DNA from: Petrolisthes cinctipes
Taxonomy: Eukaryota; Arthropoda; Malacostraca; Decapoda; Porcellanidae
Length of the DNA: 64,000 nucleotides
Assembly (NCBI GenBank): GCA_033782935.1
Contig: JAWQEG010004743.1
Span: 1-64,000 of the forward strand
Direction: 5' to 3'
Shown: positions 48,570 through 53,714 of the stretch, piece by piece
Layout of the letters: the number at the start of each line of letters is the position of its first letter
How positions within the stretch are numbered: the first letter of the stretch is position 1
Made by a program: the position numbers and the translations under genes
Notes under the pieces: generated by a model
The model's input: only the letters and a program-made list of their open reading frames with translations
What the model was told of the DNA's origin: nothing
The model's database searches: none

Positions 48570-51500
48570 TACAGTGAGTACTAGCACCAAACTCATAATG
48601 GATTTTTGGCCAGATCTTGACCTACAGATATTATTGCTATCATGACATTGTAACCGCTTCCTCCTCTGCAGCGAACCTACTGTACGAAGAGGCCCTGAAC
48701 CTCTTGAACCGGACCAAGGAGGAGGAGGGCCACGCATACGTCATACTAGAGGCGGCGGCAGAGCTGGGACATGTGGGAGCGCTGGAGAAGGTGGCCTGGG
48801 CGAGCCTCCTGGGACGCTACTTGGAGCATAACGTCACCAAGGCAGCCACCATCTTCGAAAAGTTGGCAGGCACTGGACACTCCGACGCACAGATGGTAAG
48901 TTTGTTAGACCCGGTTCGTGAGAAGGAAATGTGAGATTAAATTCTGTAGAAGGAACGGAAGCACCTCACATTATGACAAGGAGGAAATGTGAGATTGTTA
49001 GACCCAGTTTGTGAGAAGGAAATGTGAGATTGAATACTGTAGAAGGGAAAGAAGCACCTCACATTATGACAAGCTGGAAATTTGAGATTAAATACTGTAG
49101 AAGGGAAAGAAGCACCTCACATTATGACAAGGAGGAAATGTGAGGATATAATATGAAAGTGAAGGAAGCACTGCAAATTATGACATTCTCACTTTATATT
49201 TACACCATACCAAGCAGAGATATTCCTGTAATACAACCTCTACAGACGAGCAACATACCGCCTTGTCCCAGAGTAAGCATACCAATAATATCTCCCTCCT
49301 TTTCTCCAGGGAGTAAGCATACTAATAATATCTCCCTCCTTTTCTCCAGGGAGTAAGCATACCAATAATATCTACCTCCTTTTCTCCAGGGAGTAAGCAT
49401 ACCAATAATATCTCCCTCCTTTTTTCCAGGGTTTAGGGTTCATGTACGCAACCGGTATTGGAAAGAACTCGAGCCAAGTGAAGGCCTTAGTTCACTACAC
49501 GTTTGGTGCATTAGGTGGCAGTGAGTTAGCACAGATGGCCTTGGCTTACCGCTACTGGGCAGGTATCAGTGTGGCTGCCCATTGTGAATCTGCTCTAACA
49601 TACTACAGGAAGGTTTCACACACGGGTAAGAATTTCGTTATTAACTCTTGAAGTAATGTACAATCGCAATCCTAAATATGTATCCAGGCTTGCTTCGAAT
49701 AGCCTGATCGAGTATTAATTAAGCGAGCTCAAGCAAATATGAAACAGGATGAGCCTTGTAATTGGTTCACTAGTATGTCAAATGATTCGAAACTTCAACA
49801 AGACCTGGATATAAATTTTGGATTGCTACTGTACCTGCAGCTTACCTTCCAATAGCGATTTTCCCATAGATTGTGGTGCTGTGTAAAGTTCTGAACTAAA
49901 GTTTAAAAAAAAAAATTAATGCATCCTTCTAGAAAGATGTATGATGGTAAATGAGTAGCTCTGTACAGTTATAATAATCACACACGCTCCACCCTAGATA
50001 GTAATGTCAGAGGTGGGTCAATTTTTGTGCATTATATTTACTACATAGATCCACTCACTTATCTTTTATTTACTACATAGATTCACTCACTTATCTTTTA
50101 TTTACTACATAGATCCACTCACTTATCTTTTATTTACTACATAGATCCACTCACTTATCTTTTATTTACTACATAGATCCACTCACTTATCCTTTATTTA
50201 CTACATAGATCCACTCACTTATCTTTTATTTACTACATAGATCCACTCACTTATCTTTTATTTACTACATAGATCCACTCACTTATCTTTTATTTACTAC
50301 ATAGATCCACTCACTTATCTTTTATTTACTACATAGATCCACTCACTTATCTTTTATTTACTACATAGATCCACTCACTTATCTTTTATTTACTACATAG
50401 ATCCACTCACTTATCCTTTATTTACTACATAGATCCACTCACTTATCTTTTATTTACTACATAGATCCACTCACTTATCTTTTATTTACTACATAGATCC
50501 ACTCACTTATCTTTTATTTACTACATAGATCCACTCACTTATCTTTTATTTACTACATAGATCCACTCACTTATCTTTTATTTACTACATAGATCCACTC
50601 ACTTATCTTTTATTTACTACATAGATCCACTCACTTATCTTTTATTTACTACATAGATCCACTCACTTATCTTTTATTTACTACATAGATCCACTCACTT
50701 ATCTTTTATTTACTACATAGATCCACTCACTTATCTTTTATCCATACATACAGTTGCAGATGAGGTGTCACTAACAGGAAACCGAGCGGTGATGCGAGTG
50801 AGGCTGCTCGATGAAGAAAACAACCCTGGCTCGGCCTCTTCCCTCCTTGACTTTGACCTCATACAGTATTACCAGTTCCTAGCAGAGAAAGGGGATGTAC
50901 AGGCACAGGTGGGTAATTAATTCACTTATTTTGGAGATAGTGTCTGTGATTTTTTTTTTTTTTTTTTTCTCCATAACACCAATAATAGTTATGGAATTAA
51001 ATTACTGATGACATAGTTTGTGATATTTTTTTTTCTCTCCATAACACCAATAGTTATGGAATTAAATTATTGATGACTTATAGTTTGTGATTTTTTTTTT
51101 TCTCCATAACACCAATAGTTATGGAATTAAATTACTGATGACTTATATTAGCTGATGAATAGTGATTATGCCCTCAAGTCAAGTCAAGACTCTTAGAGGT
51201 ACAGCCACAATCAAATATCCACCGACACTTTCCTTCCATCGTAGTAAATATCTTGGTAATAAATAACAACACGTGTATGATTTTGCAGCACCTCATAATA
51301 ATAATTGAGGGGGTTGAGTTGACGTATGGTGTTGTATGATTATATTTTGGTATGATACTGATTTACTTGCACGATAGAAGGAAAGTGTCGGTGGTTATTT
51401 GATTGTGGCTGTACCAGAGTAATAGCAACTGTAATGAAACTGGCCCAATTGATATGGATTGTTATGAAAGAATTAAACATGTCACATTATAATTTCCTAT

Positions 51501-53714
51501 TAAGATATTACAGAGAAATGAAGAAATACGACGTTGGTGTTACATGATTATCTCCTTTGAAGTTATTACAGTGAAGTGAAGGAGTAGTTAGTGTTATATT
51601 ATAATCTCCTATGAAGTTATTACAGTGAAATGAAAAAGTCGTTGGTGTTACAGGTTGGTCTTGGTCAGCTTCACTACCAAGGTGGCCGTGGAGTGGACCA
51701 GGATCACCAGCGAGCCCTTAACTACTTCCTTCAGGCTGCTGAGGCTGGCAATGCAAATGCCATGGCTTTCCTAGGCAAGGTTGGTCAAAAGTTTCTTTGC
51801 TTAGCCTTAGTGTAATGAGTAAAAACCTGGTTGCTAGCTCTTCCACTTAGGATACCATAATTTGGTATTGAATTTACATTATTACCTTTCTATTTGTAAC
51901 CTCCTCATGGAATATTCCTTTCCCATAAATGTTAATTCTTCTTTCCTGTTCAGATGTACCTGGAGGGAAGCTCTGTGGTGAAGCAGAGCAACGAAACCGC
52001 CCTGAAATATTTTAAGAGAGCAGCCGAGCAGAACAACGCAGTGGGACAGAGTGGACTGGGTCTGATGTACCTCCATGGACGCGGTGTAGACCAAGACTAT
52101 TCTCTAGCTCTTAAATACTTTACACATGCTGCTGACCAGGGTTGGGTTGATGGACAGCTGCAGTTGGGCAATATGTACTTTAGTGAGTGGCTTTGGCTCT
52201 TTTTATTTTCATGCTGATGGGAGCTATCATGAAATACTACTGATTATACTACTATAAAATTATACTATCTACTGATTAGATAGTATAATTTTATAGTTGA
52301 TGCAATATATTTCTGATTATTTGAAACCGACAGACTCATCAACACTAAAATTTATGATTACGTAAATTAATGGTGTACTTTGGGCAGGTGGGTTGGGTGT
52401 ACGAAGGGACTACAAAATGGCAATCAAATACTTCAACCTGGCCTCTCAATCTGGTCATGTGCTGGCCTTCTACAACTTGGCTCAGATGCAGGCTTCTGGT
52501 ACAGGGATGGTGCGCTCCTGTCACACCAGTGTTGAGGTAAAGGTTATACTTACGTCCACTTTAGCAGTAACCATGTCAGAATTTTCCTCTACAGTTCTTA
52601 ACTAACCTTGTATTTCTATATAGCCTATTCTTGACACAGTGTTCGTCACATTACTGGTTTTTTTTACGTCTCTTATTTCATAACTCCATATTGTTCTTTG
52701 GATAATTTTTTTTGTTTTGTATAAACTTGTAGGCAGTTTATAGTGTTTTTAATGTTAATATTTTAATGTACAGTATTCATACTGTATAAATTTACAATTT
52801 CTACTATTCAAGAGTATGTCATAGAACTTTATCAGTGCATTGCTCTTATACACACATATATTTCTACAGCTGTTCAAGAATGTGGCAGAGCGAGGAAGGT
52901 GGGGAGAACTGTTGAATGAGGCCCACACAGCATATTGGTCTGGCCGTCATACCCAGTCCCTGGTAACCTATACATTACTGGCAGAGCTTGGGTATGAGGT
53001 GGCCCAGAGCAATGCTGCCTTTATCCTTGACCGTCACAACACACATCTCTTCCCTCAACCACAAGCTTTTGCTCGGGCACTCATGTACTGGGGTCGTGCT
53101 GCAGCACAGGTGTGTTTGTTGTCACCACCTGCATATCTGTTTATGGTTAAGGTTGTTATAAAATGAGTCAATTCAATAACAACTAGTATTAAACCTGAGG
53201 ATTTAATTTGCCACTAAAACAGGCATGGGAATGATGAAAAAAAAGTTAGGCAGTGGAAAAGGGTTAAATTGAGAAAAACCTAAAATGTGTGTGTGTTGAC
53301 CAGGGGTATGCCGTAGCCCGGGTGAAGCTTGGAGATTACCACTACTATGGATATGGGACACAAGTGGACTATGAGACAGCAGCCGCTCACTACCGCCTGG
53401 CATACGAACAACAACACAATGCTCAAGCCATGTTTAACCTTGGCTACATGCATGAGCAGGGTCTGGGCCTTAAACAGGTACAGTAACTCGATGGTATATA
53501 TTTTGCATCTATCCCGTTATTTTCATACATGAGATTATAATGATTTTATAGAAAATTCAAAAGCCTCTCACATATTCCTTTGACCTTTTATTAAAATTGA
53601 AGACTCGAGCGCCATTGCATTCCAGCTAATTGGAAGAACTCGCGCTTCTGACAAACAAATAACCAGATTATTATTATTATTATGATTATTATTTATTATT
53701 ATTATTTATTATTA

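What the first reader, a model, noticed from the sequence alone, without database searches (positions are those of the whole stretch)
48896..51653. Minisatellites anchored on splice sites in two unrelated genes
In SEL1L, tandem arrays start at the exon 3 donor (48904), end at the exon 4 acceptor (49429), end about 12 bp before the exon 5 acceptor (50742) and end at the exon 6 acceptor (51653). In HNRNPUL1 the same happens at the exon 1 donor, exon 5 acceptor and exon 11 acceptor, and the SEL1L start codon sits in the last unit of another array. Seven of the roughly 23 splice-proximal sites of the two genes are involved, and the arrays are unrelated in sequence. Arrays by chance would not respect exon edges this often. 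A duplication process tied to splice junctions, or selection for redundant splice signals, is inferred.
Basis: partly seen in the sequence, partly recalled or inferred. Interest (0 to 1): 0.75.

Follow-up and report, generated by a model that had tools for sequence, protein, structure and literature searches.

The report
Tandem-duplicated splice junctions in crab genes
In two genes of a porcelain crab, short stretches of DNA at or across exon edges have been copied in tandem into the neighbouring introns, a pattern already described in amphioxus and human genes and most simply explained by ordinary repeat growth that selection keeps out of the coding parts.

Summary
The arrays are real and nearly at the stated coordinates. 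The window encodes SEL1L and HNRNPUL1 of a decapod; the SEL1L model is 100% identical over 665 aa to Petrolisthes cinctipes Pcinc_033546. The genes have 23 introns, so 46 splice sites. They do not simply stop at exon edges: four of seven carry 2, 5, 13 and at least 29 exon bases; three end 0 to 12 bp inside the intron. The excess over random placement is modest (threshold-corrected p 0.003 to 0.026); it lies at acceptors (5 of 23 within 13 bp, 0.98 expected), not donors (1 of 23, 0.98 expected), and was noticed before it was tested. Selection for redundant signals is unlikely: using an internal site gives a premature stop in 39 of 40 cases tested. Such structures are described in amphioxus as "mirages" (PMC3087553, PMC3902484) and at human exon-intron boundaries (PMC2812944). 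Best reading: mirage-type arrays in a repeat-rich crab genome, made by ordinary tandem duplication and kept intronic by selection. A splice-coupled duplication bias is open but unproven.

The parts
48896..49185 (+). Array at the SEL1L exon 3 donor; periods 93 and 58; first copy begins at the donor GT, later copy reads GTGAGA where the donor reads GTAAGT
49271..49431 (+). Array at the SEL1L exon 4 acceptor; four 40-bp units, each a pyrimidine tract + CCAG acceptor; last unit reaches 2 bases into exon 4
50035..50741 (+). Array before the SEL1L exon 5 acceptor; 22 units of 32 bp, 99% matches; ends 12 bp before the exon (to -3 by gapped alignment)
51480..51652 (+). Array at the SEL1L exon 6 acceptor; 3.1 copies of a 54-bp unit; upstream copies lack the AG at the acceptor position (other AGs occur inside the unit)
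47051..47510 (+). Degenerate array whose last copy holds the SEL1L start region (ATG at 47493); three of the five upstream matches include the first codons, two only the 5' flank
47493..54983 (+). SEL1L gene, 12 coding exons, 11 introns; translation identical to Pcinc_033546
23581..23833 (-). Array at the HNRNPUL1 exon 11 acceptor; true site plus three internal copies of CAG|GAAAT, 5 exon bases included
34375..34527 (-). Two-copy duplication at the HNRNPUL1 exon 5 acceptor, 76-bp offset, 13 exon bases included; upstream copy reads TTTCAG|GTACGT, an acceptor directly followed by a donor-like sequence (outer limits approximate)
42164..42545 (-). Array across the HNRNPUL1 exon 1 donor; copies carry at least 29 bp of exon 1 plus the donor; two intronic copies keep TAG|GTAAGA, a further one has lost the GT
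21911..42655 (-). HNRNPUL1 gene, 13 coding exons, 12 introns (SAP, SPRY, AAA_33 domains); stop codon 21911-21913

Best explanation
These are mirage-type arrays. A short segment (about 32 to 122 bp) that overlapped or abutted a splice junction was duplicated in tandem by ordinary means (replication slippage, end joining or unequal exchange) in a genome very rich in repeats, and some pairs grew into arrays. Growth is seen only on the non-coding side because copies on the coding side would damage the protein; the exon-most unit is kept by purifying selection and is the one used in splicing, so the array seems anchored on the exon edge. Shown: the arrays, their junction-crossing content, and that the outermost site is the one that gives the conserved protein. 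Inferred: the duplication mechanism, the role of selection, and that internal sites are little used.
For: TRF arrays cover 23% of the window and 41% of SEL1L intron sequence. If arrays fell anywhere along the genes, about 11 of 46 splice sites would be covered; 7 are involved. The eight arrays are unrelated in sequence, 0 of 28 pairs above shuffles. Four of seven units contain exon bases. The spliced SEL1L protein equals the deposited one and aligns to Homarus, Procambarus and Portunus orthologues without insertions at the exon 3/4, 4/5 and 5/6 junctions; HNRNPUL1 likewise at the exon 4/5 and 10/11 junctions against three orthologues, one of them unnamed. Internal sites would give premature stops in 39 of 40 cases tested. 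Similar structures, said not to disturb splicing, are reported in amphioxus (passages read).
Against: Array ends are closer to acceptors than pseudo-junctions predict: 4 of 23 acceptors within 5 bp against 0.41 expected, p 0.0006; 5 of 23 within 13 bp against 0.98, p 0.0022. Three ends lie at 0, -3 and -3 on the intron side, which chance plus selection does not predict well, although two of these rest on weak or gapped extensions (TRF gives 6 and 12 bp). Internal sites in four arrays score as high as or higher than the true one (exon 4: 10.0-10.2 against 9.3; HNRNPUL1 exon 5: 9.3 against 8.4; exon 11: 5.2 and 5.2; exon 1 donor: 8.9 and 8.9); if used they would be harmful, so their tolerance needs an explanation. 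No P. cinctipes HNRNPUL1 protein was among the 120 listed of 1257 hits, so that model has no deposited counterpart to check against.
Confidence: 0.65

Rival explanations
1. A duplication bias tied to splice junctions, most likely 3' splice sites: transcription- or splicing-coupled DNA lesions, or low-complexity pyrimidine tracts with AG acting as slippage seeds, start tandem duplications preferentially there.
For: Acceptor ends at -3, -3, +2, +5 and +13; 5 of 23 within 13 bp against 0.98 expected. Recurs in two unrelated genes with unrelated units. Similar structures occur in other animal groups.
Against: Seven events in one window that was singled out because it looked odd; donors show no excess (1 of 23, 0.98 expected within 13 bp); no excess at 29 bp (7 of 46, 6.08 expected); the TRF-based test departs most at 70 bp in three of four settings; two further introns in the window show no such match (best scores 15 to 25, below the cut-off of 26).
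Confidence: 0.17
2. Pure coincidence in a repeat-dense genome, with no common cause beyond random placement of arrays.
For: 41% of SEL1L intron sequence is tandem array. Of 16 tests at 10 and 12 bp (two TRF settings, with or without overhang, 23 or 25 introns), the two with strict TRF, overhang and 10 bp are not significant: p 0.051 and 0.083.
Against: The other 14 of those 16 give p 0.00025 to 0.029, and four of seven arrays contain exon-derived bases.
Confidence: 0.13
3. Selection for redundant splice signals: extra copies are kept as backup or to strengthen splicing.
For: Internal acceptors of the SEL1L exon 4, HNRNPUL1 exon 5 and exon 11 arrays and two intronic copies of the HNRNPUL1 exon 1 donor score as high as or higher than the true sites; 21 of 22 units of the exon 5 array score 4.8 to 5.6 against 6.2.
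Against: Upstream copies in the SEL1L exon 6 array lack the AG at the acceptor position; donor-like copies at exon 3 score 5.7 to 6.8 against 8.6. Using an internal site gives a premature stop in 39 of 40 cases tested, so a backup would not work.
Confidence: 0.05

Closest known systems
Mirages of amphioxus (Adh3, globin BflGb6 and BflGb9; PMC3087553, abstract and passages read)
   Same: [quoted passage not shown] many but not all units keep AG/GT; regular splicing not disturbed
   Different: Crustacean, not cephalochordate; three of the seven crab arrays abut the junction without clear exon bases; instability and RT-PCR not tested here
Tandem repeats over splice sites in lancelet PGBD5 (PMC3902484, passages read)
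   Same: [quoted passage not shown]
   Different: Different gene and lineage
Variable internal tandem repeats at human exon-intron boundaries in segmental duplications (PMC2812944, abstract and passages read)
   Same: Minisatellite-type repeats (on average 30-bp units, 4 copies) at exon-intron boundaries; 27 intron modifications listed
   Different: There the repeats change splicing and can form novel introns; the crab proteins show no change at the junctions that could be judged
[quoted passage not shown]
   Same: A duplication across an intron-exon boundary whose exonic segment can supply a donor, as the HNRNPUL1 exon 5 copy does with CAG|GTACGT
   Different: No new intron is seen in the crab genes
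Simple-sequence-repeat expansion in introns of penaeid shrimp (PMC7878876, passages read)
   Same: Introns of orthologous genes differ in repeats while exons stay conserved
   Different: Those are 1-6 bp repeats with no link to splice junctions in the passages read

Membership tests
Mirage (minisatellite-like duplication of an intron/exon boundary) | Tandem unit spans the exon-intron boundary | tested here: met
   4 of 7 arrays, with 2, 5, 13 and at least 29 exon bases; 3 of 7 do not clearly span it
Mirage (minisatellite-like duplication of an intron/exon boundary) | Many but not all units carry AG/GT splice signals | tested here: met
   Per-unit scores
Mirage (minisatellite-like duplication of an intron/exon boundary) | Authentic unit is the exon-most one and splicing is normal | tested here: inconclusive
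   Supported at protein level for the SEL1L junctions and two of three HNRNPUL1 junctions; no RNA data
Mirage (minisatellite-like duplication of an intron/exon boundary) | Copy number differs between haplotypes or somatic cells | not testable with these tools
   One haplotype only; the genome search did not complete
[quoted passage not shown]
   No insertion at the SEL1L exon 3/4, 4/5 and 5/6 junctions nor at the HNRNPUL1 exon 4/5 and 10/11 junctions; HNRNPUL1 exon 1/2 too variable to judge
Recursive splice site | Acceptor directly followed by a donor (AG|GT) used in stepwise intron removal | tested here: inconclusive
   Sequence present in the HNRNPUL1 exon 5 upstream copy (CAG|GTACGT); use not testable

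The most novel reading that the evidence does not exclude
In decapod genomes 3' splice sites are hot spots where tandem duplications begin, through a splicing- or transcription-coupled process, so that introns lengthen by repeated copying of their own acceptor; some copies, such as CAG|GTACGT in HNRNPUL1 intron 4, could act as recursive splice points or seeds of new introns.
Probability: 0.12. Interest if true: 0.75.

Novelty: new member of a known kind. Interest (0 to 1): 0.36.

Why it matters
Boundary duplications of this kind are in print for amphioxus and for human duplicated genes; in the listings of my searches I saw no crustacean case. Several of them in one 64-kb stretch of a crab suggest they may be a wider by-product of repeat-rich genomes. 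They offer raw material for tandem acceptors and for intron gain, and P. cinctipes has a sister-species assembly and RNA-seq, so the bias question can be settled by counting.

Tried and rejected
Selection for redundant signals was considered and put low. The idea that all arrays simply stop at exon edges was rejected: four of seven cross. An excess at donors was looked for and not found. My first scoring of internal sites used matrices that contained the array-linked sites themselves and made the exon 5 copies look much weaker than the true site; rescoring with 18 acceptors and 21 donors free of arrays brought them close to it, and the report uses the second scoring. Microhomology at unit boundaries was looked at by eye only and is not used. 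Assembly artefact was judged unlikely because the assembly is from PacBio HiFi reads (PMC10849366, abstract and passages read) and the longest array of the set is about 0.7 kb. A check on the whole genome could not be done: the genome search gave no answer in ten tries. Canestro 2002, Zhuo 2007 and Gao and Lynch 2009 are not held and are known to me only as references in papers that I opened.

Full report
What the window is. Splicing the + strand gene at 47493-54983 gives a 665-aa protein with Sel1 repeats (578 aa given), best PDB matches SEL1L, and 100% identical over its whole length to Pcinc_033546 of the porcelain crab Petrolisthes cinctipes. The - strand gene at 42655-21911 encodes an HNRNPUL1-type protein with SAP, SPRY and AAA_33 domains (first 786 aa given), 82% identical to the Eriocheir orthologue over the part searched, residues 380-860; no P. 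cinctipes protein was among the 120 listed of 1257 hits. The published assembly is from HiFi reads, 75% repeats, mean intron 1,362 bp, genes predicted with RNA-seq-trained BRAKER (PMC10849366, abstract and passages read). The deposited protein therefore supports my SEL1L exon edges but is not proof of each junction.

Checking the observation. The two genes have 23 introns and 46 splice sites. TRF finds 19 merged arrays in these introns; 6 of 19 end within 12 bp of a splice site, 5 of 19 with stricter scoring. To avoid dependence on TRF I compared the 70 bp around each of the 46 sites with the rest of its intron, up to 3,000 bp. The homology ends relative to the junction are: acceptors +2 (SEL1L exon 4), -3 (exon 5; TRF -12), -3 (exon 6; TRF on the A of AG), +13 (HNRNPUL1 exon 5), +5 (HNRNPUL1 exon 11); donors 0 (SEL1L exon 3; TRF +6) and -29, close to the limit of the query (HNRNPUL1 exon 1). 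The introns of the two cuticle genes at 2.9 and 14.5 kb gave best scores of 15 to 25, below the cut-off of 26.

Is it more than chance? Random placement of the arrays within their own introns expects 1.25 (no overhang) to 1.92 (10-bp overhang allowed) ends within 12 bp; 6 are seen, p 0.00025 to 0.0028; with strict TRF, 5 seen, 1.08 to 1.71 expected, p 0.0017 to 0.014; at 10 bp with strict TRF and overhang p is 0.051. Adding the two cuticle introns (24 arrays in 25 introns) and correcting for the choice of threshold gives p 0.0034 and 0.0069, or 0.014 and 0.026 with strict TRF; uncorrected p at 10 bp with strict TRF and overhang is then 0.083. In three of the four settings the smallest p was at 70 bp, so part of the signal is a general drift of arrays towards intron ends. 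In the alignment survey, pseudo-junctions inside the same introns served as control: within 5 bp, 4 of 23 acceptors against 0.41 expected (p 0.0006) and 1 of 23 donors against 0.44; within 13 bp, 5 of 23 acceptors against 0.98 (p 0.0022) and 1 of 23 donors against 0.98; within 29 bp, 7 of 46 sites against 6.08. If arrays were laid anywhere along the genes, about 8.9 of 22 SEL1L and 2.1 of 24 HNRNPUL1 splice sites would be overlapped. So involvement of seven sites is unsurprising; the closeness of the ends at acceptors is what stands out, modestly, and it was noticed before it was tested.

What the units contain. Scored with matrices built from the 18 acceptors and 21 donors that have no array: the three internal acceptors of the exon 4 array score 10.0-10.2 against 9.3 for the true one; the three of the HNRNPUL1 exon 11 array equal it (5.2); the upstream copy at HNRNPUL1 exon 5 scores 9.3 against 8.4; two intronic copies of the HNRNPUL1 exon 1 donor equal it (8.9), and a further one has lost the GT. 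In the exon 5 array 21 of 22 units score 4.8-5.6 and the first, partial one 0.1, against 6.2. Donor-like GTGAG sites in the exon 3 array score 5.7-6.8 against 8.6. The upstream copies of the exon 6 array read TTACAT and TTATAT where the true site reads TTACAG; other AGs inside that unit score up to 5.8 against 7.2. Using an internal site brings a premature stop in 14 of 14 cases outside the exon 5 and 6 arrays, 21 of 22 in the exon 5 array and 4 of 4 in the exon 6 array; the exception adds 11 codons. Not every GT or AG in the arrays was tested. The eight arrays, the start-codon one included, show no similarity to one another (0 of 28 pairs above 50 shuffles).

Which site is used. At the exon 3/4, 4/5 and 5/6 junctions of SEL1L the crab protein aligns to Homarus, Procambarus and Portunus without an insertion, and HNRNPUL1 does so at the exon 4/5 and 10/11 junctions; the region after exon 1 of HNRNPUL1 is too variable to judge. 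The exon-most site is therefore the one that makes the conserved protein. The first residues of SEL1L (MMTRLR) lie in the last copy of an upstream array; Procambarus begins MTRLR, so the coding copy looks like the source and the upstream copies the derivatives.

Mechanism. I take the arrays as ordinary tandem duplications of segments that overlapped or abutted splice junctions, which could grow only into the intron because selection protects the exon-side unit. That explains the orientation, the exon bases inside units, the unrelated sequences and the number of sites involved. It does not fully explain the tight clustering at acceptors, for which a duplication bias at 3' splice sites is the main rival (0.17).

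Comparison with the known. [quoted passage not shown] similar repeats occur in lancelet PGBD5 (PMC3902484, passages read). In human segmental duplications, variable minisatellite-type repeats at exon-intron boundaries underlie 27 intron modifications (PMC2812944, passages read). A boundary-crossing duplication in potato gave rise to a new intron (PMC4974935, abstract read). Four of the seven crab arrays meet the structural definition of a mirage. In the listings of my ten searches of the held library I saw no crustacean case, but I opened only six papers, and most subscription papers are not held.

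Noticed in passing
39161-39491 (-): A coding minisatellite: 12.3 copies of a 27-bp unit in HNRNPUL1 exon 2, in frame, encoding KKTPEPSPV repeats.
   Followed up: partly
30910-34200 (+): 1096-aa open frame with endonuclease and reverse transcriptase domains, a non-LTR-type element inside HNRNPUL1 intron 5 in antisense orientation.
   Followed up: partly
35471-37177 (-): 568-aa open frame with DDE_Tnp_1_7, by recall the piggyBac-type transposase domain, in HNRNPUL1 intron 4, same strand as the gene.
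   Followed up: partly
50035-50741: The 22-unit, 32-bp array is 99% matched, more uniform than the other splice-linked TRF arrays, so it has probably spread or been homogenised recently.
   Followed up: no
34451-34503 (-): The upstream copy at HNRNPUL1 exon 5 puts an acceptor directly before a donor-like GTACGT (AG|GT), the arrangement of a recursive splice site.
   Followed up: partly
8948-9303, 12029-12339, about 16740-16950, 47600-47760, 62120-62330: A G-rich family (GGGGTGCGGGAGTAGGGGGACAGGCTTGG) recurs across the window in both orientations, by eye sometimes as facing copies.
   Followed up: no
2869-6379 and 14464-19160 (+): Two neighbouring cuticle-protein genes (domain tested for the second only) with, by eye, nearly identical 3' parts and in-frame coding repeats; each has one long repeat-rich intron with no array at its splice sites.
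   Followed up: partly
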